In this document: positions 29,337 through 41,134 of the stretch, piece by piece | Layout of the letters: every line of letters begins with the position of its first letter | Position numbering within the stretch: position 1 is the first letter of the stretch | Assembly: GCA_937124585.1 (NCBI GenBank) | Contig: CAKZKT010000143.1 | Coordinates: 1 to 41,134 of the forward strand | DNA length: 41,134 nucleotides | Source: an uncultured Anaerolineae bacterium | Lineage (GTDB): Bacteria > Chloroflexota > Anaerolineae > CG2-30-64-16 | Direction: 5' to 3' | Translations under genes and position numbers: made by a program | The notes under the pieces: model-generated | Told to the model about the DNA's origin: nothing | The model's input: only the letters and a program-made list of their open reading frames with translations | Database searches by the model: none

Positions 29337-30458
29337 ATGGATCCGCTTGCCTATTGGATCGGCTTCAACAAAGTGCGCGGCATCGGGCCGGCGCGATTGC
29401 GCGCCTTGCTCGACGCCTTCGGCTCCATCGAGCAGGCCTGGCATGCCCCGGCCGACCTGCTGGCCGAGATCGGCCTGGATCGCCGCTCGACCGCCAGCCT
29501 GGTGCAGGCGCGCCGCGAGCTCGACCTGGCGGCCGAGCTCGCGCGAGTGAAAAAGAGCGGCGTCCAGGTTTTAACCTGGGAGGATCAGCGCTATCCGGAA
29601 CGGCTGCGCATGATCAACGATCCGCCACCTGTGCTTTACATAAAAGGAGAACTACGGCCGGCCGATGACTGGGCGGTGGCGCTGGTCGGCACGCGCAAAG
29701 CGACCGCCTATGGCCGGGAGGCCGCCCGCATTCTGGCGACCGATCTGGCTCGCGCCGGTGTGACGATCGTCAGCGGGCTGGCGAAAGGCATTGACACCCT
29801 CGCGCATTGCGGCGCCATTGACGCCGGTGGCCGGACGTTGGCCGTGCTTGGCAGCGGGGTGGACATCATCTACCCCTATGAGAACCTGAAGCTGGGGCAA
29901 GAAGTGGTCAAACACGGCGCTCTGATCAGCGAATATCCGCTGGGCGCGCCGCCCGAAGCCAACAACTTCCCCCCGCGCAATCGCATCATCAGCGGCCTGA
30001 GCCGCGGGGTGATCGTTGTCGAAGCCGGCGAGCAGAGCGGCGCGCTGATCACGGCCGCGTTCGCAGCGGATCAGGGCCGCGAGGTCTTTGCCGTACCGGG
30101 CAGCATCTTCCAGCGCGGCAGCATCGGCACCAACCGGCTGATCCGCGATGGGGCCACACCCGTGCTCTCGGCCGACGACGTACTGGAAGCGCTCGACCTG
30201 AAGCGTGTGGCGCAGCATGCAGAGGCACAGATGCTGCTGCCGACCGACGCCACCGAGGCGCTGCTCTTCGAGCATATCGGCGAGGAGGCGACGCACGTGG
30301 ACGAGATCGGCCGTGCCGTCGGCCTGCCCATCGCCACCGTGTCCAGCACATTGGCGATCATGGAATTGAAGGGGCTGGTGCGCGCGGTCGGCGGCATGAA
30401 CTACGTGCGGGCGCGCGAGACCGGCCCCAGCTACGAGGCGACGTCTGACACAGCGTGA
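29337..30458 (+). CDS. dprA: DNA-processing protein DprA
   Basis: 373 residues. N-terminal helical HhH/SAM-like part (1-75) with WIGFNKVRGIGPARLRALL; Rossmann-like DprA core from ~110 (VALVGTRKATAYGREAA, VSGLAKGIDTLAHCGAI, GSGVDIIYPYEN, NFPPRNRIISGLSRGVIVVEA, GSIFQRGSIGTNRLIRDGA); C-terminal winged helix (~300-360). It loads RecA on incoming single strands during natural transformation. GGGAGGGG lies just before the ATG. Linked to topA and xerC as in Firmicutes, but with a mannose-1-phosphate guanylyltransferase gene in between. Confidence 0.95.
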   Translation: MDPLAYWIGFNKVRGIGPARLRALLDAFGSIEQAWHAPADLLAEIGLDRRSTASLVQARRELDLAAELARVKKSGVQVLTWEDQRYPERLRMINDPPPVLYIKGELRPADDWAVALVGTRKATAYGREAARILATDLARAGVTIVSGLAKGIDTLAHCGAIDAGGRTLAVLGSGVDIIYPYENLKLGQEVVKHGALISEYPLGAPPEANNFPPRNRIISGLSRGVIVVEAGEQSGALITAAFAADQGREVFAVPGSIFQRGSIGTNRLIRDGATPVLSADDVLEALDLKRVAQHAEAQMLLPTDATEALLFEHIGEEATHVDEIGRAVGLPIATVSSTLAIMELKGLVRAVGGMNYVRARETGPSYEATSDTA

Positions 30459-30562
30459 GCCGGACGCCGGCGTTGCGGGACGACTTTTGGATCCCGGCCG
30501 GTCATGAGGCCGTCGCAAGCACCGGGTGCAGGGATATATTCGGGACAGGAGGCTTTGCAACG

Positions 30563-31633
30563 ATGCTCTATGCCGTCATCATGGCGGGCGGTTCTGGCAC
30601 GCGGCTCTGGCCGTTGAGCCGCAAGAGCCGGCCCAAGCAGTCGCTCCAGCTCATTGGCGACCGCACCATGTTCCAACATGCCGTGGATCGTCTGGCATCC
30701 CTCTTGCCGGCCGAGCGCGTCTACGTGGTGACCAATGCCGCCGTGGCCGAACTTTTGCGACCTCAAGCCCCTGCTCTGCCACCGCAGAACTTCATCCTGG
30801 AGCCATTTCCCCGTGATTCTGCGCCGGCCGCCGGCCTGGCCGCCGTTGCCCTGTTGCATCAGGACCCCGACGCGATGATGGCGATGCTGACTGCCGACCA
30901 CTTCATCGTGGACACGGCCGGCCTGCGCGCTGCGCTGGCCGCGGCCGCCCAGGTTGCAGCCGACGGCACGATCGTTACGCTGGGCATTCGGCCCACCTTC
31001 CCGGCCACCGGCTACGGCTACATTCGTTTGGGCGAGCCGCTAGCGGCCGTGGATGGCCTGGCGGTCTATCGCTCGGCCGGCTTCGTCGAAAAACCGGATC
31101 GCCTCACGGCCGAACAGTTTCTGGCCGACGGCCGCTACGTTTGGAACAGCGGCATGTTCATCTGGCGGGCCGACCGGCTGCTGCGCGAGTTTGCCGATCA
31201 GCTGCCGGAGTCGTATACTGCGCTGCAACGCATCGCCGCCGCGTTCGGCACGGCCGAGCAGGCCGCGACGTTGGCCGCCGAATGGCCCAACATGCGGAAG
31301 ATCTCCATTGACTTCGGCATCATGGAGCGCGCCGAGCGGGTCGCCGTCATCCCGGTCGAGATCGGCTGGAGCGACATCGGCGATTGGGCTTCGCTGCTCG
31401 ATCTGCTTCCGGGCGATGAACGCGGCAACCTCATTACCGGCGAGGTGATCCTGCACGACACGGAAACGAGCCTGGTGCGCAGCGAGGGCAGGCTGGTTGT
31501 CGCCATCGGCCTGAAGAATTTCGTGATCGTTGAAACCCCCGATGTGGTGTTGGTTTGCCCGAAGGAACGCGTGCAGGAAGTGCGGACCATCGTTGATCGG
31601 CTGCGGGAAGAAGGCAATCAGAGATATTTGTAG
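30563..31633 (+). CDS. Mannose-1-phosphate guanylyltransferase
   Basis: 356 residues. It makes GDP-mannose from mannose-1-P and GTP. The nucleotide-binding start MAGGSGTRLWPLSRKSRPKQ (7-26), ILEPFPRDSAPAAGLAAVAL, the ADHFIVD metal site, GYGYIRLGEPL, FVEKPDRLTAEQFLADG and WNSGMFIWRAD segments are all typical. It lacks the C-terminal isomerase domain of bifunctional ManC. AGGAGG precedes the ATG at 30563. It lies seven bases before topA. GDP-mannose would feed glycans or glycolipids of the envelope. Confidence 0.94.
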   Translation: MLYAVIMAGGSGTRLWPLSRKSRPKQSLQLIGDRTMFQHAVDRLASLLPAERVYVVTNAAVAELLRPQAPALPPQNFILEPFPRDSAPAAGLAAVALLHQDPDAMMAMLTADHFIVDTAGLRAALAAAAQVAADGTIVTLGIRPTFPATGYGYIRLGEPLAAVDGLAVYRSAGFVEKPDRLTAEQFLADGRYVWNSGMFIWRADRLLREFADQLPESYTALQRIAAAFGTAEQAATLAAEWPNMRKISIDFGIMERAERVAVIPVEIGWSDIGDWASLLDLLPGDERGNLITGEVILHDTETSLVRSEGRLVVAIGLKNFVIVETPDVVLVCPKERVQEVRTIVDRLREEGNQRYL

Positions 31634-31640
31634 AGACGGC

Positions 31641-34463
31641 ATGGCTGAAGAGGAACTGACTGCTTATTGTGTGAAATGCCGGGCCATCCGGCCGCTGCGC
31701 GATCCGCAACCCGTGTTCATGGCCAACGGCCGGCCCGCGACGCGCGGGCGGTGCGCCGAATGCGGCATGAGCCTGTTCAAGATCGGCGAGACGCCGGCCC
31801 ATGCCGGTCTGGCGAAGCCCGCCGTCGCAACGACCGGCAAACCGCAGGCCGAACGGGCCGCGCCCAGGCCGGCCGAGACGGATGTCGTGTCCGGGCCGCT
31901 GACCGTCACCGTCCAGGCATATTGTGTCAAATGCAAGACGATGCGGGCCATGACAGAGGGTCGCGCCATCTTCATGGCCAACGGCCGACCGGCTGCCGAG
32001 GGTCGCTGTGGCGAGTGCGGCACCCGCCTGTTCAAGATCGGCGCCACACCGGATCATGCCAGGCTGAGCCAGCCGGCCGGCCCGACCCCCGCCGCGCGCA
32101 GCCGGGCCGACAAAGCCGGTGCCTCGCCGACTGCGACCGCGCGGACGGATGGGGCACGGCCATCCTCGCAAGCCGGGAAGACGAAGGCCACCGTAACCTC
32201 GTCGGCCGCGCGCCGGCAGCCGGCCACGCCAGAGCGGCCGGCCGGCCAGGGCAGTGGTCGCCTCGTCATCGTCGAGTCGCCCGCAAAGGCGCGCACGGTG
32301 GGCCGCTTCCTCGGCAAAGGCTATGACGTGCGCGCCTCGATCGGCCACGTGCGCGATCTGCTCAAATCGCGACTGTCGGTGGACATCGAACACGACTTTG
32401 TACCCACCTACCGCGTGCCCGATGACAAAAAAGAGGTGGTCAAGGCCCTGAAGGCGGCCGCGGCCCAGGCGCGCGAAGTTTACCTGGCCACCGACCCCGA
32501 CCGCGAGGGCGAGGCGATTGCCTGGCATTTGCTCGAAGCGGCCGAGATCCCCGCTGACCGGGTGCGCCGCGTGGTGTTTCACGAGATCACCAAACAGGCC
32601 ATTGACGAGGCGTTCGCACACGCGCGCGACATTGACATGCGCCTGGTAGATGCCCAGCAGGCGCGGCGCATCCTCGACCGCCTGGTTGGCTATCAGGTCA
32701 GCCCGCTGCTGTGGGACCGCGTGAAGAGCCGGCTCTCGGCGGGCCGCGTGCAGACCGTGGCCCTGCGCCTGGTTGTCGAGCGCGAGCGCGAGATCGCCGC
32801 GTTTGTGCCCGTCGAATATTGGTCCATTGACGCCGACCTGGCCCAGCGCACCACGCGCGGCCAGACGCCGCGGCCGAGCTTCCTGGCGCGGCTGATCCGC
32901 ATCCGCGGCCAGGAGGCCGACCTGAAGCGCCGCGAAGACACGCAGGCGGTCCTGTCTGAGCTGGAGACAGCCCGGTACACGGTCGCCGCGATCAGGCGTG
33001 GGGAACGCCGGCGGCGGCCCAACCCGCCCTTCACCACCAGCACGCTGCAGCAGGACGCCGGTCAGAAGCTCGGCATGACCGCGCAGCGCACGATGCGCGT
33101 CGCCCAGGAGCTGTACGAGGGCATTGACATCGGCGAGGGGGTGGTGGGCCTGATCACGTACATGCGCACCGACAGCGTCAACGTGGCCCAGGAAGCGCAG
33201 GCCGAAGCCCGTGCCCTCATTGCTGCCACCTACGGGCCGGAATATGTGCCGGCCGAGCCGAACATCTACAAAACGCGCTCGAAGAACGCGCAGGAGGCGC
33301 ACGAGGCGATCCGGCCCACCTCGAGCCGGCGCACGCCGCAGAGCCTGCGCGACCGGCTGACGCGCGATCAGTATCGCCTTTATGAGCTGATCTGGCAACG
33401 CTTCATCGCCAGCCAGATGGCACCGGCCATCTTCGACACGGTCACCGTGGACGTGGTGGCCGGTCCGCCGGGCAGCGAGGAACAGCCCTATCTGCTGCGC
33501 GCCAACGGCTCGGCCGTGCGTTTTCCGGGGTTCTTGGTGGTCTATGCGGGTGGCGCAGCCGGGCCGGCCGAAAACGGCACCGGCGAGCGCGAGAACGGCG
33601 TCGCAGCCCGTGAGACCGGCGGTCAGGCTGCGGAGCGGGAGGGCGGCGAGGCCGAAGCAAGCGTGACCGCCCTCAGCCCGGTGTTGACGCAGCTCAACGT
33701 GGGCGAGCCGCTCGACTTGCTGAAGCTCATCCCCGAACAACACTTCACGCAGCCGCCTCCCCGCTACACCGAGGCCACCCTGGTGAAGGCGCTGGAGGAA
33801 AACGGCATCGGCCGGCCGAGCACCTATGCCGCCATCATCTCGACCATCGTTGACCGCGGCTATGTGGAGCGGCAGGAGCGCAAGCTTGTGCCCACGGCGC
33901 TCGGCTATACGGTCAACGATCTGTTGGTGCAGTATTTCGACCCGGTGTTCAACGTCGGCTTCACTGCCTCGATGGAAGAGCATCTCGACAGCATCGCGCG
34001 CGGAGAGGAGCAGATGGCGCCCGTGCTGCGCACCTTCTACGATTTCTTCGTGCCGCAGCTTCAGCACGCCGAGCGCACCATGCAGAGGGTGACGGTAGAG
34101 CCGGAAAAGATCGGCGAGACGTGCCTCGAGTGCGGCGGCGAGCTGATCATCAAACAGGGGCGGTTCGGCAAGTTCATCGGCTGTGCCAACTATCCGACCT
34201 GCCGCTACACCCGGCCGCTGGTCGCCCGCTTGGGGATTGCCTGTCCGAAGGACGGCGGCGAGCTGGTCGAGCGGCGCAGCCGGGCCGGCCGGGTTTTCTA
34301 CGGCTGCGCCAACTATCCCAAATGCGATTTCACCACATGGCGTCGGCCCCTGCCGCAGCCATGTCCGCAGTGCGGGGGACTGCTGGTGGTCGTCAACAAA
34401 GAATGGGCCGAATGCACCGTCTGTCAGGCGCGGTTCAAAATCGAGAGCCTGACCGGCAGTTAG
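31641..34463 (+). CDS. topA: DNA topoisomerase I with two extra N-terminal zinc fingers
   Basis: 940 residues. The type IA core starts at ~207: TOPRIM LVIVESPAKARTV, ATDPDREGEAIAWHL, and the catalytic Tyr507 in YMRTDSVN. The C-terminus has three zinc ribbons (CLECGG, CPKDGG with GCANYPKCDF, CPQCGG/CTVC). Unusually, the N-terminus carries two DUF5679-like fingers, each YCVKC...NGRPA..GRC.ECG..LFKIG (Cys10/13/38/41 and Cys95/98/123/126), joined to the core by a ~70-residue Pro/Ala/Thr linker. A second low-complexity insert (~635-675) splits the core. It relaxes negative supercoils. The ATG at 31641 lies seven bases after the previous stop, with only a weak ribosome-binding site, suggesting coupling. 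Confidence 0.95.
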   Translation: MAEEELTAYCVKCRAIRPLRDPQPVFMANGRPATRGRCAECGMSLFKIGETPAHAGLAKPAVATTGKPQAERAAPRPAETDVVSGPLTVTVQAYCVKCKTMRAMTEGRAIFMANGRPAAEGRCGECGTRLFKIGATPDHARLSQPAGPTPAARSRADKAGASPTATARTDGARPSSQAGKTKATVTSSAARRQPATPERPAGQGSGRLVIVESPAKARTVGRFLGKGYDVRASIGHVRDLLKSRLSVDIEHDFVPTYRVPDDKKEVVKALKAAAAQAREVYLATDPDREGEAIAWHLLEAAEIPADRVRRVVFHEITKQAIDEAFAHARDIDMRLVDAQQARRILDRLVGYQVSPLLWDRVKSRLSAGRVQTVALRLVVEREREIAAFVPVEYWSIDADLAQRTTRGQTPRPSFLARLIRIRGQEADLKRREDTQAVLSELETARYTVAAIRRGERRRRPNPPFTTSTLQQDAGQKLGMTAQRTMRVAQELYEGIDIGEGVVGLITYMRTDSVNVAQEAQAEARALIAATYGPEYVPAEPNIYKTRSKNAQEAHEAIRPTSSRRTPQSLRDRLTRDQYRLYELIWQRFIASQMAPAIFDTVTVDVVAGPPGSEEQPYLLRANGSAVRFPGFLVVYAGGAAGPAENGTGERENGVAARETGGQAAEREGGEAEASVTALSPVLTQLNVGEPLDLLKLIPEQHFTQPPPRYTEATLVKALEENGIGRPSTYAAIISTIVDRGYVERQERKLVPTALGYTVNDLLVQYFDPVFNVGFTASMEEHLDSIARGEEQMAPVLRTFYDFFVPQLQHAERTMQRVTVEPEKIGETCLECGGELIIKQGRFGKFIGCANYPTCRYTRPLVARLGIACPKDGGELVERRSRAGRVFYGCANYPKCDFTTWRRPLPQPCPQCGGLLVVVNKEWAECTVCQARFKIESLTGS

Positions 34464-34482: not shown

Positions 34483-35415
34483 ATGCAAGATGAGCTCGAC
34501 CGTTACATCAAATATCTGGTTGCCGAGCGCAACGCATCACCGCACACGGTTGCCAACTACCGCCGCGAGATCGCAGAACTGCTGGCATTTGCCCAGGAGA
34601 AGGGGCTCGCCGGTTGGGCAGAGGTGACGCCGGCTCTGCTTCGCCAGTGGCTGGCGAAGCTGCACGCGGCCGGATATGCGAAGGCCAGCATCGCTCGCCG
34701 CCTGTCCGAGGTGCGCGCCTTCTTCGTCTTTCTGCACAGCCGTAAGCTGGTGACGAGCAACCCGGCCCAGGCTGTCGCCGCGCCCAGGCTGCCGCAGCGC
34801 CTGCCGCGGCCACTGACTGCGGCCGAGATCAAAGCGTTGCTGGTCGCGCCCGATCCGGACACCCCGCAGGGCCAGCGCGATCGGGCCATGCTCGAGCTGC
34901 TCTACGCGGGCGGCCTGCGCGTCAGTGAGCTGCTCCTGCTCGATGTAGAGGATGTGGATCTGGCGCAGGCGCAGGTGCGCGTGCTGGGCAAAGGCGCCAA
35001 AGAGCGGATCGCGCTGATCGGTCAGCCGGCAGTGGACGCGCTGCGGCGCTACCTGGCCGAGGGCCGACCCAGCCTGCTGGCTGCTGCGGCCGCCGGGCGC
35101 TCGGGCCGGCCCGAACGGGCGCTCTTCCTCAACCGGTTCGGCCGTCGTCTCTCTGTGAGCATGTTCACCCGCTCGCTGGCTGACTATGCCCGCAAAGCCG
35201 GCATCGAGCATCCCGTGACGCCGCACATGCTGCGCCATAGTTTCGCCACGCATCTGCTCGACGGCGGCGCCGACCTGCGTTCGGTGCAAGAATTGCTGGG
35301 ACACGAGAGTCCCAGCGCAACCCAAATCTACACAGAGGTCAGCCAGGCGCATCTGCGCGACACGGTGCTGAACGCCCATCCGCGAGCCCGGCGACCGCCC
35401 ATCGAAGGGACATAG
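34483..35415 (+). CDS. xerC: Tyrosine recombinase XerC-like
   Basis: 310 residues. N-terminal SAM-like core-binding domain (1-95) and C-terminal catalytic domain with all six expected residues: Arg146 (GGLRVSEL), Lys in GKGAKER (170-173), His248 and Arg251 (HMLRHSFATH), His274 (LGHES) and Tyr283 (QIYTEV). It should resolve chromosome dimers at dif with a partner Xer protein. It follows topA by 19 bases and precedes the peptidase by five. XerC versus XerD cannot be told apart from sequence alone; linkage to topA and dprA favours XerC. No dif-like site was recognised nearby. Confidence 0.92.
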   Translation: MQDELDRYIKYLVAERNASPHTVANYRREIAELLAFAQEKGLAGWAEVTPALLRQWLAKLHAAGYAKASIARRLSEVRAFFVFLHSRKLVTSNPAQAVAAPRLPQRLPRPLTAAEIKALLVAPDPDTPQGQRDRAMLELLYAGGLRVSELLLLDVEDVDLAQAQVRVLGKGAKERIALIGQPAVDALRRYLAEGRPSLLAAAAAGRSGRPERALFLNRFGRRLSVSMFTRSLADYARKAGIEHPVTPHMLRHSFATHLLDGGADLRSVQELLGHESPSATQIYTEVSQAHLRDTVLNAHPRARRPPIEGT

Positions 35416-35420
35416 CACGC

Positions 35421-36533
35421 ATGGAATCACCGATGACCCCTCTCGCACCATCGCCTTTTGCCGATCGTCTGGCGCGGCTGCGCGCGAAGCTGGCTCAGGA
35501 GGAATTGGACGCGCTCCTGGTGAGCCAGCCCGAAAACCGCCGCTACCTGAGCGGCTTCACCGGCTCGGCCGGCTGGCTGCTGATCTCGGCCGATCAGGCC
35601 CTCTTCGCGACCGACTTTCGCTACTATGAGCAGGTGGGGCTGGAGTGCCCCGACTTCGAGCTGGTCAGGCTGACCACCGGCCTGAAGGATGCTTTGCCCG
35701 ATATGATCGGCCGCGTCGCCGCGCGGCGGGTCGGCTTCGAGGCCGATCACGCCACTTATGCCAGCTTTCAGGAATGGACCGAGGCGGTCAAAACGTGCGA
35801 GTGGGTGCCGACCAAAGGGCTGATCGCGCCCCTGCGCGCGGTCAAAGATGCGGCCGAGCTGGCGGCCGTGCGTGCGGCCGTCGCGCTGACGGACGAGGCG
35901 CTGGCCAGTGTGTTGCCGGAGATCCGGCCTGGCATGACCGAGCTGGACGTGGCCTGGCGCATCGAGAGCGCCATGCGCACGCGCGGCGCGGACGGCGTGG
36001 CCTTTGATCTGATCGTTGCTGGCGGCTCCAACGCCGCGCGACCACACGCCCGGGCCAGTCGGCGGCCGCTGCAGGCCGGCGAGCCGATCGTCATAGACAT
36101 CGGCGCGCGCGTCGACGGCTATTGCGCCGACCTCACCCGTACCGTCTGTCTGGGCCGGCCGGTGGATGAGGCGCGTTTCTGGGAGGTGTACAACACGGTG
36201 CTGCGCGCTCAGACGGCCGCCGAGGCTGCCATCCGGCCCGGCTTGCGGGGTAAGGAAGGCGATGCCGTGGCCCGCGATCTGATTGCGGCGGCCGGCTATG
36301 GCGAGTATTTCGGGCATGGCTTGGGGCATGGTGTGGGCCTGGCCGTTCACGAGGAGCCGCGGCTGTCGCGCCTGGCCGACGAGCCGCTGCCCGCGGGCGC
36401 TCTGGTCACCGTCGAGCCCGGCATCTATCTGCCCGGTTGGGGCGGTGTGCGCATCGAGGACCTGGTTCTGGTGACGGAAAACGGCGTCGAGGTGCTGAGC
36501 CAGGCTTCCAAAGAGCCGATTCTGTTCGTGTAG
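35421..36533 (+). CDS. Xaa-Pro aminopeptidase / dipeptidase (M24B)
   Basis: 370 residues. N-terminal creatinase-like domain (YLSGFTGSAGWLLIS ... ATDFRYYEQV) and pita-bread metallopeptidase domain with the five metal ligands: two Asp in VIDIGARVDGYCADLTRT, His in GHGLGHGVGLAVHEEP, Glu in TVEPGIYLPGWGG and Glu in VRIEDLVLV. It cleaves N-terminal residues before proline. AAGGGA precedes the ATG. It is cotranscribed with the recombinase and is followed by a hairpin, so a transcript end here is plausible. Confidence 0.93.
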   Translation: MESPMTPLAPSPFADRLARLRAKLAQEELDALLVSQPENRRYLSGFTGSAGWLLISADQALFATDFRYYEQVGLECPDFELVRLTTGLKDALPDMIGRVAARRVGFEADHATYASFQEWTEAVKTCEWVPTKGLIAPLRAVKDAAELAAVRAAVALTDEALASVLPEIRPGMTELDVAWRIESAMRTRGADGVAFDLIVAGGSNAARPHARASRRPLQAGEPIVIDIGARVDGYCADLTRTVCLGRPVDEARFWEVYNTVLRAQTAAEAAIRPGLRGKEGDAVARDLIAAAGYGEYFGHGLGHGVGLAVHEEPRLSRLADEPLPAGALVTVEPGIYLPGWGGVRIEDLVLVTENGVEVLSQASKEPILFV

Positions 36534-36707: not shown

Positions 36708-37862
36708 ATGCGGCACAAACAGAGTACGTTGACCGTTTGGTTGATCGGCGGGTTGGCAGCATTGGCGGGCGTGTTGGTCGGCTGGCTCGTGATCGGCTGG
36801 ACGTTGTGGCCCGTGCAGTGGACGAGTGTGCTGCCGGCCGACCTGGTCACAGAGGGCCGCCAACAGTATCTAGACCTGGTCGCCGAGTCGTATGTGCTCA
36901 ACAAAAACGTCGTCCTGGCTCAACAGCGCCTGACATCGTTCCTGCCTGCCGAACAGCCTGCGCTTCTGGCCGATGTCACCACGCGCGTGGCGCGCCGGCT
37001 CGAGCATACCGAGAACATCCTCGTGCTCGGTGCGGATCAGCGGCCTGGCTGGGAGGCCTGGCGCACCGATTCGATCATGGTCGTGGCGATCGACGCGCCG
37101 GCTCGGCAGGTGGGGATCATCAGCATCCCGCGCGATCTGTATGTGGAGGTTCCCGGCTACGGCAAGGAACGAATCAACGCCGTAGACTATATCGGCGAGA
37201 AGAAGAAGGTGCCGGGCGGCGGGCCGGGGCTGGTGGCGCAGGTGATCTCCGAGACCCTCGGCATCCCCACGCAGCACTATGCCCGTATCCAGATGGACGG
37301 ACTGGCACGGCTGATTGATGCGTTGGGCGGCGTCACGGTCACCCTCGATTGTCCCCTCTACGAGCGGACACCGAATGACGCCCTGCCGGCCGGTTACGAG
37401 GAATGGGTGCTGCCCGCGGGCACGGTGTGGCTCAACGGCGACGACGCTCGCAAGTTTGCCACCTACCGCTATGTCACCTCTGACTTCGGCCGCATTCAGC
37501 GTCAGCAGCAACTGATCTGGGCGATCCGCAACCGTGCCCTGCAGGCCGACGTTCTCCCGCGCATCCCGGAGCTGTGGCGCGCGTTCTCCGACATGTTCGT
37601 CACCGATCTGAGCCTGGTGGACGTGATCCGCCTGGCCAGTTTCGGCGTCAAGCTCAAGCCGTCCGATGTACATGGCCTGGTACTCGGCTACGGGGTGCTG
37701 CGCGATTACATCACCGAACACGGGGAGATGGTGCTGGTGATCGGCGATGAGGCCGATCTTGTTGTCGCCAAAGAACAGCTTTTCATGGGCAAACCGCTGG
37801 CTCAATTGGGCCGGTTGGAGCCGGGCCAGTCCCAAGAATGTCCGCCGCCGCCCAAGCCCTGA
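36708..37862 (+). CDS. LytR-CpsA-Psr (LCP) family glycopolymer ligase with WPVQWT module
   Basis: 384 residues. One N-terminal membrane helix (~10-33), then a juxtamembrane module (~34-80: WPVQWTSVLPADL...QQYLDLVAESY...AQQRL), then the LCP domain (~102-270). LCP motifs: ENILVLGADQR, RTDSIMVVAID, SIPRDLYVEVPG, KERINAVDYIG, and YVTSDFGRIQRQQQ with the conserved Asp and Arg residues. LCP proteins move undecaprenyl-linked polymers onto the cell wall or other acceptors outside the membrane. The C-terminal ~110 residues are a helical extension ending in a Pro-rich tail. It is followed 49 bases later by a gene sharing the same N-terminal module. Confidence 0.9.
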   Translation: MRHKQSTLTVWLIGGLAALAGVLVGWLVIGWTLWPVQWTSVLPADLVTEGRQQYLDLVAESYVLNKNVVLAQQRLTSFLPAEQPALLADVTTRVARRLEHTENILVLGADQRPGWEAWRTDSIMVVAIDAPARQVGIISIPRDLYVEVPGYGKERINAVDYIGEKKKVPGGGPGLVAQVISETLGIPTQHYARIQMDGLARLIDALGGVTVTLDCPLYERTPNDALPAGYEEWVLPAGTVWLNGDDARKFATYRYVTSDFGRIQRQQQLIWAIRNRALQADVLPRIPELWRAFSDMFVTDLSLVDVIRLASFGVKLKPSDVHGLVLGYGVLRDYITEHGEMVLVIGDEADLVVAKEQLFMGKPLAQLGRLEPGQSQECPPPPKP

Positions 37863-37911
37863 ATGTTGTTTGCGTGCAATTAACTCCTGGAGATCACGAG
37901 GAGGGTGAGAG

Positions 37912-39162
37912 ATGTCTGGCAACCCCGAAGTCAAACGACCCGTGTGGGTAGTTCCGGTTACGGCCTTCCTGATCGGCTTGCTGATCGGCTGGTGGGTGAT
38001 CGGCTGGTGGCTGTGGCCGGTACAATGGACGAATGCCTTGCCGGTTGATCTGCGCGCGGCGGAGCGCGATCAGTATCTGATGATGGTCGCCGAGTCTTTC
38101 GCCGCCAGTGGCAACGCCGACCAGGCGCGTGATCGGCTCAAATGGTGGTCTGCCGACAAGCTGGCCAAATATCTGGCAGATCTGCAGGAGCGGGTCGGCG
38201 CGAACACGCCCCAGGCAGCTCAAGTCAAGGCGCTGGCCGAGCTGATGGGCGTGAGCCAGCCGGCCGCGGCGGGACCTCAGGTGCCGGCTCCGACGACCGG
38301 TCGGCCCGAGGCGACGTCCGGGCCCGGGCCGAGCCTCGTCGCAGTGTTGCGCAGCATTGTCACGGTTCTCCTCTGGCTGCTGTTGTTTGTTGCGGCGCTC
38401 GTCATCGTTTATCTTCTGTGGGCGAAATGGCGAAAGGCATATCAGGGACCGCGGCCGGCCGCGATTGATGTGACCGCGCGGTCGGGCCGGACGCCGGCCG
38501 TCACGCAACGCACGCTCGATGAGATCGCCGCTGAAGGCAAGGGGCGCTGGATCGGCGAGGAGGTCGCAGAGACAACCGGCGCCGATATCTGGGAACCCGT
38601 CGCGGGCATTGACCAGGAGGGCCCGGCACCGCAGCCGACGCCGACCGCGCCCGCTGTCGGTGTCAAGCCGATCGTGCCGGGCGGCGTCACTCCGCCTTCG
38701 TCGCCGGCGACCGCGCGGCCGCAGCCCGGCAGGCCCGCCGGCCGCGTCATCACGTTCCGGGCGCTCTATCAGATGGGCGAGGCGGGCTATGACGAGGGCT
38801 TCGATATCAACGATGCCCGGGGTGAGTATCTGGGGCAGTGCGGCCTGGCGCTGAACGACCCGGTCGGCCGCAGCCACGATCAGGCGGCCGCATTGCAGGC
38901 CTGGTTGTGGGATCAACGCGACCCCGATACAAAGCTTAAAGTCCTGATGAGCGAGGGCGCGTATCGCGACACGGCCATGCGAGAGCAGCTGAAGGGCGAA
39001 CACGAGGCGATTCCGGTGCGCGCAGGCACGGAGTTCACGCTGGAGACCCACACGCTAATTCTGCACGGGACGGTGGAGCGGGTGGAATACGCCGATGTGG
39101 ACCCGCCCTTCACGATCTTCGCCGAGCTCATGGTGCGGTTCCAGGTGGCGCAGAAGGCCTGA
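37912..39162 (+). CDS. Two-helix membrane protein sharing the LCP-linked WPVQWT module
   Basis: 416 residues, not assigned to a named family. A first membrane helix (~12-34) and the segment WPVQWTNALPVDL...DQYLMMVAES...QARDRL (~35-76) match the start of the preceding LCP protein closely. A second membrane helix lies at ~148-170, followed by WAKWRKAY, so positive charges place the N- and C-termini inside and the module outside. A Pro-rich linker (~205-285) leads to a ~130-residue C-terminal domain (RVITFRALYQMGEAGYDEGF ... ILHGTVERVEYADVDPPFTIFAEL), rich in beta strands. A strong GAGGAGGG precedes the ATG. A sensor or envelope-assembly partner of the LCP enzyme is plausible, but this is inference. 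Confidence 0.75.
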   Translation: MSGNPEVKRPVWVVPVTAFLIGLLIGWWVIGWWLWPVQWTNALPVDLRAAERDQYLMMVAESFAASGNADQARDRLKWWSADKLAKYLADLQERVGANTPQAAQVKALAELMGVSQPAAAGPQVPAPTTGRPEATSGPGPSLVAVLRSIVTVLLWLLLFVAALVIVYLLWAKWRKAYQGPRPAAIDVTARSGRTPAVTQRTLDEIAAEGKGRWIGEEVAETTGADIWEPVAGIDQEGPAPQPTPTAPAVGVKPIVPGGVTPPSSPATARPQPGRPAGRVITFRALYQMGEAGYDEGFDINDARGEYLGQCGLALNDPVGRSHDQAAALQAWLWDQRDPDTKLKVLMSEGAYRDTAMREQLKGEHEAIPVRAGTEFTLETHTLILHGTVERVEYADVDPPFTIFAELMVRFQVAQKA

Positions 39163-39211: not shown

Positions 39212-40372
39212 TCAGACGCGTGCTTCGGGATCGAAGAGCTTTTTGTACTCTGAAATGGCGTAGCGGTCGGTCATGCCGGCCAGATAGTCGCAGACCACCC
39301 GCTCGGCCGGATCTGGGCCGCGCTGGATGCGCGTCTGGATATCGAAGGGGAGCTGCAGCGGTTCCTCCACATAGGCGTGAAAGAGATCGGTGAGGAGCCG
39401 GTGTGCTTTGCTGGCCATGCGCATCACGCGCGGATGGCGGTAGAAGCGGCGCATCAGAAAGTCTTTGAGCTCCCGATTCATCGCTGCCATCTCCGCGGAG
39501 AAGCCGGCAATGTTCTGCCCGACCGCGCGCACATCCTCTACGCTGCGCAGATCCAGCGCGGTGATGCGGGCTGTCGTCGCCGTGATGGCGTCGGTGATCT
39601 CCAGGCCGATCAGGCGGCGGATGACGCGTGCGCGCAGCAGATCATCCAGCCGGCAATCGAGGCGTTCCTGGAGCGATGCCAGGGCGCGGCGCCACAGCGT
39701 CAGCTCGCGCACCTCCAGCGGGTCGAGCAGGCCGCTGCGCAGACCATCCTCCAGATCGGCGGTGTTGTAGGCGATTTCATCGGCCAGATTGGCCAGCTGG
39801 CACTCCAGCGTGCCGACGCGCTCCGGCTCGTAGCCGGTGGCGTCGGTCACGTCGTAGTCGGTGTCATGCTTCACCAGCCCCTCGCGCACCTCGTAGGTCA
39901 GATTGAGGCCGGGGAATTCCGGATAACGCTCCTCGAGCCGGGTGACGATGCGCATCGTCTGGCGCTGATGGTCGAACCCGCCGTATTGTTGCATCAGGCC
40001 GTTCAGGGTTGTTTCGCCGGTGTGGCCGAAGGCCGGATGCCCCAGGTCATGCGCCAGGCAGATCGCCTCGGTCAGGTCTTCGTTGGCGCCCAGCGCGCGC
40101 GCCAGGGTGCGCCCCAGCTGCGCGACTTCGATCGTGTGGGTCAGGCGGTTGCGGTAGTGATCGCCTTCGTGGTAGACGAAGACCTGGGTTTTGTATTCGA
40201 GGCGACGGAAGGCGGTGGTGTGGATGATGCGGTCGCGGTCGCGCTGAAAGGCGGTGCGATAGGGATGCTCTGCTTCACTGTACTCGCGGCCGCGCGTGGC
40301 GCTGCTTTGCATGGCATAGGGCGCGAGCGATGCACGCTCGCGCGCTTCGATTGCTTCTCGGTCCACAAACAT
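39212..40372 (-). CDS. dgt: dGTP triphosphohydrolase-like HD-domain protein
   Basis: 386 residues. HD-domain hydrolase of the dGTPase family: RDRDRIIHTTAFRRLEYKTQVFV, then RLTHTIEVAQ (His79), AICLAHDLGHPAFGHTGE (His108/Asp109) and LADEIAYNTADLEDGL with the fourth metal ligand. These enzymes split dNTPs into nucleoside and triphosphate and adjust dNTP pools. The length fits the shorter, non-enterobacterial dGTPase-like type. AGGAGG precedes the ATG at 40372. It is cotranscribed 27 bases behind the small unknown gene. Confidence 0.93.
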   Translation of the reverse strand: MFVDREAIEARERASLAPYAMQSSATRGREYSEAEHPYRTAFQRDRDRIIHTTAFRRLEYKTQVFVYHEGDHYRNRLTHTIEVAQLGRTLARALGANEDLTEAICLAHDLGHPAFGHTGETTLNGLMQQYGGFDHQRQTMRIVTRLEERYPEFPGLNLTYEVREGLVKHDTDYDVTDATGYEPERVGTLECQLANLADEIAYNTADLEDGLRSGLLDPLEVRELTLWRRALASLQERLDCRLDDLLRARVIRRLIGLEITDAITATTARITALDLRSVEDVRAVGQNIAGFSAEMAAMNRELKDFLMRRFYRHPRVMRMASKAHRLLTDLFHAYVEEPLQLPFDIQTRIQRGPDPAERVVCDYLAGMTDRYAISEYKKLFDPEARV

Positions 40373-40863: not shown

Positions 40864-40946
40864 TGTCTGGTGCGGGTTGACGTACCGGCAGGTCCGTAAC
40901 CCAGCGGCCGGCGTTGCATCTAACACTACAACCGCACTTCTTTGGA

Positions 40947-41134
40947 CTGCGGCAGCGTGCTGCCGCTTTTGATCGGGCTGCGGGGGGTGACGGCAAAGCG
41001 GCGTCGTGCCGCCGCAAGCCACAGTTTGGCCTGCGGCAGCGTGCTGCCGTTTTTGGCAGCGGGCTGCGGGGGGCGACGGCAAAGCGGCGTCGTGCCGCCG
41101 CAAGCCACAGTTTGGATTGCGGCCGCGTGCTGCC
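40947..41134. repeat. Tandem 84-86 bp hairpin-rich repeat running off the right edge
   Basis: Units start at 40947, 41031 and 41117 (the last cut by the window end). Each begins (C/T)TGCGGC(A/C)GCGTGCTGCC, where CGGCAGC and GCTGCCG form a tight hairpin, continues through a GGGCTGCGGGGGG block, then GACGGCAAAGCGGCGTCGTG with a second hairpin-forming GCGGC/GCCGC pair, and ends GCAAGCCACAGTTTGG. The first two units differ only around the T-run. The 83 bases to the left (40864-40946) show no gene, apart from a degenerate CTTTGG tail of a possible earlier unit. Confidence 0.8.

What the first reader, a model, noticed from the sequence alone, without database searches (positions are those of the whole stretch)
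36708..39162. LCP ligase and neighbouring membrane protein share an undescribed WPVQWT module
Both proteins begin with a membrane helix followed by the same pattern: G(W/-)..W.LWPVQWT..LP.DL....R.QYL..VAES.......AQ.RL. In the second protein the module is outside and a second helix leads to a cytoplasmic beta domain. The two genes are adjacent and may form a pair in which one ligates glycopolymers and the other reads or anchors the same site. I know no named domain for this module.
Basis: partly seen in the sequence, partly recalled or inferred. Interest (0 to 1): 0.6.

Follow-up and report, generated by a model that had tools for sequence, protein, structure and literature searches.

The report
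Shared membrane-anchor module in Anaerolineae proteins
Two neighbouring cell-surface genes in an uncultured Anaerolineae bacterium begin with the same undescribed membrane-anchor module; it turns out to be carried by many proteins across that whole bacterial class, and the enzyme that attaches sugar polymers to the cell wall acquired it only recently.

Summary
The LCP ligase (36708-37862) and its neighbour B (37912-39162) share a homologous ~95-residue N-terminus: 41/98 identities, E 2e-19, and still significant without the membrane helix. No Pfam, NCBIfam or PDB family covers it. It is a class-wide module of Anaerolineae (Chloroflexota): found in 39 of 41 relatives (with B as query) and in 48 of 55 class members among 400 phylum genomes, but in only 3 of the other 345. 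It is a TM helix, a Trp-rich WPV motif at the membrane edge, and a predicted four-helix, TPR-like bundle (pLDDT about 95). It carries at least five partners: an LCP ligase, B's cytoplasmic beta domain, secreted beta domains, a PP2C phosphatase, and a lipoprotein form. Tandem module genes lie divergent from an ECF sigma/anti-sigma pair in 11 genomes and convergent with an LCP gene in one other family. B is ancestral and syntenic. The module-LCP is rare and of single origin (3 genomes), derived from lipoprotein LCPs, and adjacent to B in only two of the three. So 'undescribed shared module' is right, while 'obligate ligase-reader pair' is weakly supported. Best reading: an extracytoplasmic anchor/docking stalk shared by envelope proteins. 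Function is inferred, not shown.

The parts
36708..37862 (+). A: LCP-family glycopolymer transferase with N-terminal module (384 aa)
   Evidence: PF03816 E 1.9e-32, TIGR00350 100.3 bits vs cut-off 62.3; solved LCP relatives incl. MsrR/LcpA and TagT
36732..37007 (+). module in A (residues 9-100): TM helix, WPVQWT, first helices
   Evidence: module profile match E 1.8e-29 over profile 2-92 of 109
37062..37538 (+). LCP catalytic domain of A (Pfam match)
   Evidence: R119, D143, N157, R254, D259 invariant in 22 family LCPs or nearly so and aligned with LcpA R99, D123, N137, R218, D224 (PMC7831098)
37912..39162 (+). B: two-TM protein with module and C-terminal beta domain (416 aa)
   Evidence: no Pfam/NCBIfam match over cut-off; homologues in 39 of 41 relatives
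37939..38250 (+). module in B (residues 10-113): TM 13-34, helices 49-66, 69-75, 81-94, 99-112
   Evidence: AlphaFold2 with 26-row alignment, pLDDT 94-97 over the helices; module alone with 80 rows, mean pLDDT 87, same helices
38335..38442 (+). second long helix of B (residues 142-177), TM2, followed by WAKWRKAYQGPRP
   Evidence: sequence
38746..39153 (+). C-terminal beta domain of B (residues 279-414), predicted cytoplasmic
   Evidence: pLDDT mostly above 90; conserved class-wide
35421..36533 (+). M24 aminopeptidase gene; class-wide upstream neighbour of B
   Evidence: PF00557 E 3.8e-68; synteny
34483..35415 (+). tyrosine recombinase (XerC-like), part of B's conserved neighbourhood
39212..40372 (-). 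dGTPase-like HD phosphohydrolase, convergent neighbour of B
   Evidence: PF01966/PF13286; synteny

Best explanation
The shared segment is an undescribed, Anaerolineae-wide membrane-anchor and stalk module: one TM helix, a Trp-rich WPV(Q/E)(W/Y)T motif at the outer membrane face, and a short TPR-like helical bundle held just outside the membrane. Different lineages put different domains on it. B is the ancestral, syntenic bearer, with the module outside, a second TM helix and a beta domain inside. In this family an LCP ligase that was originally a lipoprotein swapped its anchor for a B-type module, once. The module holds each attached domain at a fixed height at the membrane and most likely docks it to other module-bearing or envelope-assembly proteins. 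For A this means lipid-linked glycopolymer and nascent peptidoglycan can be joined at such a site. Shown by computation: homology, class-wide spread, architectures, single origin of the fusion, intact LCP active site. Inferred: the module lies outside, and the stalk role. Speculative: docking, and A-B interaction.
For: Homology of A and B N-termini. Class-wide family: profile built from 30 members finds 48 of 55 class members and 3 of 345 other phylum genomes; a post-TM profile of 80 members gives 71 hits at E <= 0.001 among the ORFs of later-fetched loci, some from genomes already sampled. Same module on LCP, PP2C (L057, PF13672 E 2.3e-17, with module C-terminal of the TM), secreted P/T-linker beta proteins, and a lipoprotein form in this same genome (L133). 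Position outside agrees across three architectures: LCP must be outside and follows the module; PP2C must be inside and precedes the TM; B has WAKWRKAYQ after TM2. Helical bundle predicted with pLDDT about 95; TPR families are the most frequent sub-threshold Pfam match (6 of 80 members). LCP tree: module-LCPs one clade (100/99) inside the family's lipoprotein-type LCPs. Module tree: one clade (99/97) on the B side; grouping with family B modules not rejected (AU p 0.69). Envelope context: ECF sigma/anti-sigma divergent from module genes in 11 genomes, LCP convergent with them in 7 refetched loci of another family.
Against: No experiment. No solved or named relative, so 'docking' rests on TPR resemblance only; Foldseek gives no match at E <= 0.001 and helical bundles match many things. 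In A the fourth helix is missing. Module sequences diverge fast (30% identity is common), which a passive stalk would also show. The sigma-factor and LCP neighbourhoods involve the tandem branch of the family, not B or A.
Confidence: 0.55

Rival explanations
1. Passive anchor. The module is only an interchangeable membrane tether plus spacer, spread by duplication of B's 5' end next door and equivalent in function to a lipoprotein signal; it binds nothing, and A and B share it by history only.
For: Anchors are exchanged in both directions: LCP paralogues in the same family are lipoproteins, and the module's helical part occurs behind a lipoprotein signal in this genome (L133). A sits beside B in the two genomes where capture by local duplication is easiest to imagine.
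Against: Conservation extends well past the membrane into a folded bundle with conserved R, L, Y and A positions, more than a bare tether needs; the helical part is kept even where the anchor was replaced by a lipobox.
Confidence: 0.28
2. One reading: A ligates glycopolymer and B recognises or anchors the same site through homotypic module contact, passing the state to the cytoplasmic beta domain.
For: Adjacent, same strand, 49 bases apart with a GGAGG-type ribosome site before B; adjacent also in G008. Precedent for ligase plus domain-sharing partner: LytR_C-only proteins Cei and VirR share LytR_C with LCP enzymes and give similar phenotypes (PMC7831098).
Against: B is found without module-LCP in the other family members and class-wide; in G002 both exist but lie apart. 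No co-occurrence pattern beyond three genomes.
Confidence: 0.15
3. Chance or compositional similarity of membrane-proximal Trp-rich sequence.
For: Both begin with a Trp/Gly-rich TM helix.
Against: Score of the post-TM part is far above every shuffle; reversed sequences give no hit with the post-TM profile.
Confidence: 0.01

Closest known systems
LytR-CpsA-Psr (LCP) glycopolymer transferases (PF03816; TagT/U/V, LcpA, Cps2A)
   Same: A's catalytic domain, active-site Arg/Asp/Asn positions and N-terminal membrane anchoring
   Different: The segment between TM and LCP domain is the WPV module, not seen in solved members; closest paralogues in the same family are lipoproteins without it
Cps2A accessory domain (between TM and LCP domain; PMC7831098)
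   Same: An extra extracytoplasmic domain between TM helix and LCP domain
   Different: A's module shows no sequence match to Cps2A: the alignment begins at A residue 102; the module is predicted all-helical and is shared with non-LCP proteins
LytR_C-only partner proteins (Cei, VirR; PMC7831098)
   Same: The idea: a TM protein sharing an accessory domain with an LCP enzyme but lacking the LCP domain
   Different: B carries no LytR_C domain in Pfam and has a second TM and a beta domain; no functional link has been tested
Tetratricopeptide-repeat (TPR) helical hairpins
   Same: Predicted antiparallel helical hairpins; 'Y..LVA.AYA..GDL..A..RL' resembles a TPR unit; TPR models are the commonest weak Pfam hits
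   Different: All below curated cut-offs, no significant fold match

Membership tests
LCP family (PF03816 / TIGR00350) | Catalytic domain over the curated score cut-off | tested here: met
   112.9 bits vs 24.6; 100.3 vs 62.3
LCP family (PF03816 / TIGR00350) | Conserved active-site residues (LcpA R99, D123, K135, N137, R218, D224) | tested here: met
   Align with A R119, D143, R155 (K to R), N157, R254, D259 (LcpA residues from PMC7831098, chain numbering offset of 54 inferred from their agreement)
LCP family (PF03816 / TIGR00350) | Transfer of glycopolymer to peptidoglycan | not testable with these tools
   needs biochemistry
TPR | Score over a Pfam TPR gathering cut-off | tested here: not met
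   TPR_19 in 6 of 80 members, best E 0.0033; consensus TPR_4 11.7 bits vs cut-off 27
TPR | TPR-like superhelical fold | tested here: inconclusive
   Four-helix bundle predicted; AIP, FimV, BepA and KLC1 TPR chains appear among weak matches only
Cps2A accessory domain | Sequence or fold relation to the Cps2A accessory domain | tested here: inconclusive
   A matches Cps2A only over the LCP domain; Cps2A absent from the profile search at E <= 10; folds not compared directly
LytR_C-only proteins (Cei, VirR) | LytR_C domain (Pfam) | tested here: not met
   No LytR_C match in B at E <= 10
WPV module family (defined here) | TM helix + WPV motif + Y..(L/M)(V/A)A..(Y/F)....(D/N)L..A..RL helices | tested here: met
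   A and B both match the class-wide profile (E 1.8e-29 and 4.9e-38; both are among its 30 seed rows)

The most novel reading that the evidence does not exclude
The module is a class-specific organiser of the Anaerolineae cell envelope: a homotypic docking stalk that gathers a glycopolymer ligase, a PP2C phosphatase, secreted beta proteins under an ECF sigma factor, and a transmembrane beta-domain protein into one assembly or signalling platform, comparable in role to LytR_C but unrelated in sequence.
Probability: 0.15. Interest if true: 0.7.

Novelty: new variant of a known kind. Interest (0 to 1): 0.42.

Why it matters
Anaerolineae are abundant but mostly uncultured, and how they build their envelope is poorly known. 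A class-wide domain without a name, placed on an LCP ligase, a PP2C phosphatase, sigma-factor-linked surface proteins and a conserved two-TM protein, gives one handle on several unknown proteins at once. It would also let annotators name many hypothetical proteins. The anchor swap in LCP enzymes shows that ligase anchoring is evolutionarily exchangeable.

Tried and rejected
Known-domain explanation for the module: Pfam, NCBIfam, PHROGs (B) and PDB sequence searches gave nothing over cut-off. Fold identity: full model and module alone gave no Foldseek match at E <= 0.001; VIA-align best Z 4.5 and 6.7, below the level the tool calls meaningful, so no fold is claimed. Two other LCPs whose matches began at A residues 16 and 37 (G469, G020) carry only a TM helix, no module. 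Plasmid search with the module: no match. Promoter/terminator scan around A and B: uninformative. No paper found joining Anaerolineae and LCP proteins; the 2008 LCP survey reports Chloroflexi LCPs from Chloroflexales and Herpetosiphonales (PMC2632651).

Full report
Observation. The two ORFs are at the stated places: A, 36708-37862, an LCP-family protein; B, 37912-39162, with no named domain. Their N-termini align without gaps at 41 of 98 identities, E 2e-19. Shuffling tests give 197 against a best shuffled score of 60; without the TM helix, 127 against 47. The similarity is therefore real homology that extends beyond the membrane.

What A is. PF03816 at 112.9 bits (cut-off 24.6), TIGR00350 at 100.3 (62.3). 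The nearest solved relatives are MsrR/LcpA and other LCP proteins. The alignment to LcpA places A's R119, D143, R155, N157, R254 and D259 on LcpA R99, D123, K135, N137, R218 and D224, residues named in the review PMC7831098. The chain-numbering offset of 54 is my inference from all six agreeing. Most of these positions are invariant or nearly so among 22 family LCPs. A is thus probably an active glycopolymer ligase; activity is not shown.

What B is. AlphaFold2 with a 26-row alignment gives: TM helix 13-34; helices 49-66, 69-75, 81-94 and 99-112 at pLDDT 94-97; a long second TM helix 142-177; a disordered linker; and a beta domain 279-414 at pLDDT mostly above 90. WAKWRKAYQ after TM2 puts the beta domain inside by the positive-inside rule (established knowledge). 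The beta domain has no confident structural match.

The module family. B homologues are in 39 of 41 relatives. A profile of 30 modules searched over 400 phylum genomes hits 48 of 55 same-class genomes (the seven without it all belong to one family) and 3 of 345 others. Named hits are Anaerolineae or unclassified Chloroflexota MAGs and Anaerolinea and Longilinea isolates, so the class is Anaerolineae. The consensus is a TM helix, then GW..WPV(E/Q)(Y/W)T(N/D).DP.DLR..(Y/R)...Y..(L/M)VA.(S/A)YA.DGDL..A..RL and two more helices. Its post-TM part alone, as a profile, gives 71 hits in later-fetched loci and none in reversed sequences. The later loci include some genomes already sampled, so this is not a fully independent test.

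Architectures: (i) B type, TM-module-TM-beta. (ii) Class-wide tandem genes, TM-module-P/T-rich linker-beta domain. (iii) PP2C-TM-module in G013, with the usual PP2C motifs by eye. (iv) TM-module-TM-acidic tail in G038. (v) LCP. (vi) In this very genome (C22), the helical part behind a lipobox, followed by an SH3_3 domain and a beta domain, with no WPV. These agree that the module faces outward: the LCP domain after it must be outside and the PP2C before the TM must be inside.

Neighbourhoods. B is syntenic across the class: dprA, a mannose-1-phosphate guanylyltransferase-like gene, topA, a tyrosine recombinase, M24 peptidase, B, and a convergent dGTPase-like gene, with losses. A is an insertion between the M24 gene and B in this genome and in G008. 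Tandem module genes lie divergent from an ECF sigma factor and a zf-HC2 anti-sigma gene in 11 genomes, including this one. In another family (f28; family name not established) they are convergent with a TM-type LCP gene in 7 of 10 refetched loci of that family, and in none of the 4 refetched loci from two other families. These are inherited neighbourhoods, so the counts are not independent events.

Origin of the LCP fusion. Module-bearing LCPs were found in three genomes only: this one, G008 (Prado095) and G002 (Prado092). A search of 249 class genomes showed no other among the listed matches; the list was cut at about E 7e-49, so weak ones could be missed, and two doubtful cases were checked and lack the module. 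In the LCP tree the three form one clade (100/99) inside the family's own LCPs, whose other members mostly have lipoprotein signals. In the module tree they form one clade (99/97) on the B side. A joint clade with the family's B modules is not rejected and had a higher likelihood than the free search (AU p 0.69); grouping with the tandem branch is disfavoured but not rejected (p 0.07). So an LCP exchanged its lipoprotein anchor for a B-type module once, plausibly copied from the gene next door. In G002 the fused gene lies away from B, between an aldehyde-ferredoxin-oxidoreductase-like gene and a solute-binding lipoprotein gene (identified by eye).

Mechanism. Best supported: a membrane anchor with a folded helical stalk that sets the height and surroundings of the attached domain and probably docks to other proteins. 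Docking rests on TPR-like hairpins: TPR families are the commonest weak Pfam match, but all are below cut-off, and fold matches are weak. LCP enzymes with an accessory domain between TM and catalytic domain (Cps2A), and LytR_C-only partner proteins (Cei, VirR), are known precedents for both halves of the picture (PMC7831098), but neither was found to be a sequence relative of this module.

Shared, undescribed module: correct. Outside module with inside beta domain in B: supported by prediction. A and B as a dedicated pair: possible but weak, because B is ancestral and independent and the adjacency holds in two of three cases.

Noticed in passing
L057:3192-4364 (-) (G013): PP2C-type phosphatase domain fused through one TM helix to the module at its C-terminus; PP2C motifs look intact.
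   Followed up: partly
L056, L058, L061, L062, L064, L067, L068, L069, L070, L133, L150: Tandem module genes lie divergent from an ECF sigma factor and a zf-HC2 anti-sigma gene (in L133 with a beta-propeller-like part): a candidate class-wide envelope-stress regulon.
   Followed up: partly
L152-L158: In one Anaerolineae family a TM-type LCP gene is convergent and adjacent to the tandem module genes, a second link between LCP enzymes and this module family.
   Followed up: partly
L133:2916-4871 (+) (own genome, contig C22): Lipoprotein-anchored version of the module's helical part with an SH3_3 domain and a beta domain, no WPV motif.
   Followed up: partly
window 38746-39153: B's beta domain (GEYLGQCG..., WLWD....T...VLMSE) is conserved across the class and lacks any Pfam family; weak versions occur in other Chloroflexota classes (L136, L137).
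   Followed up: partly
window 31530-34463: TopA carries two N-terminal DUF5679 zinc-ribbon-like repeats before the Toprim domain; the longest ORF overlaps the upstream gene, so the true start is probably later.
   Followed up: no
window 30455-31633: Mannose-1-phosphate guanylyltransferase-like gene (NTP_transferase + ManC beta-helix) in the conserved topA-B neighbourhood.
   Followed up: no
window 40941-41134: An 86-base tandem repeat, 2.3 copies, runs to the end of the contig, which may be why the assembly stops there.
   Followed up: no
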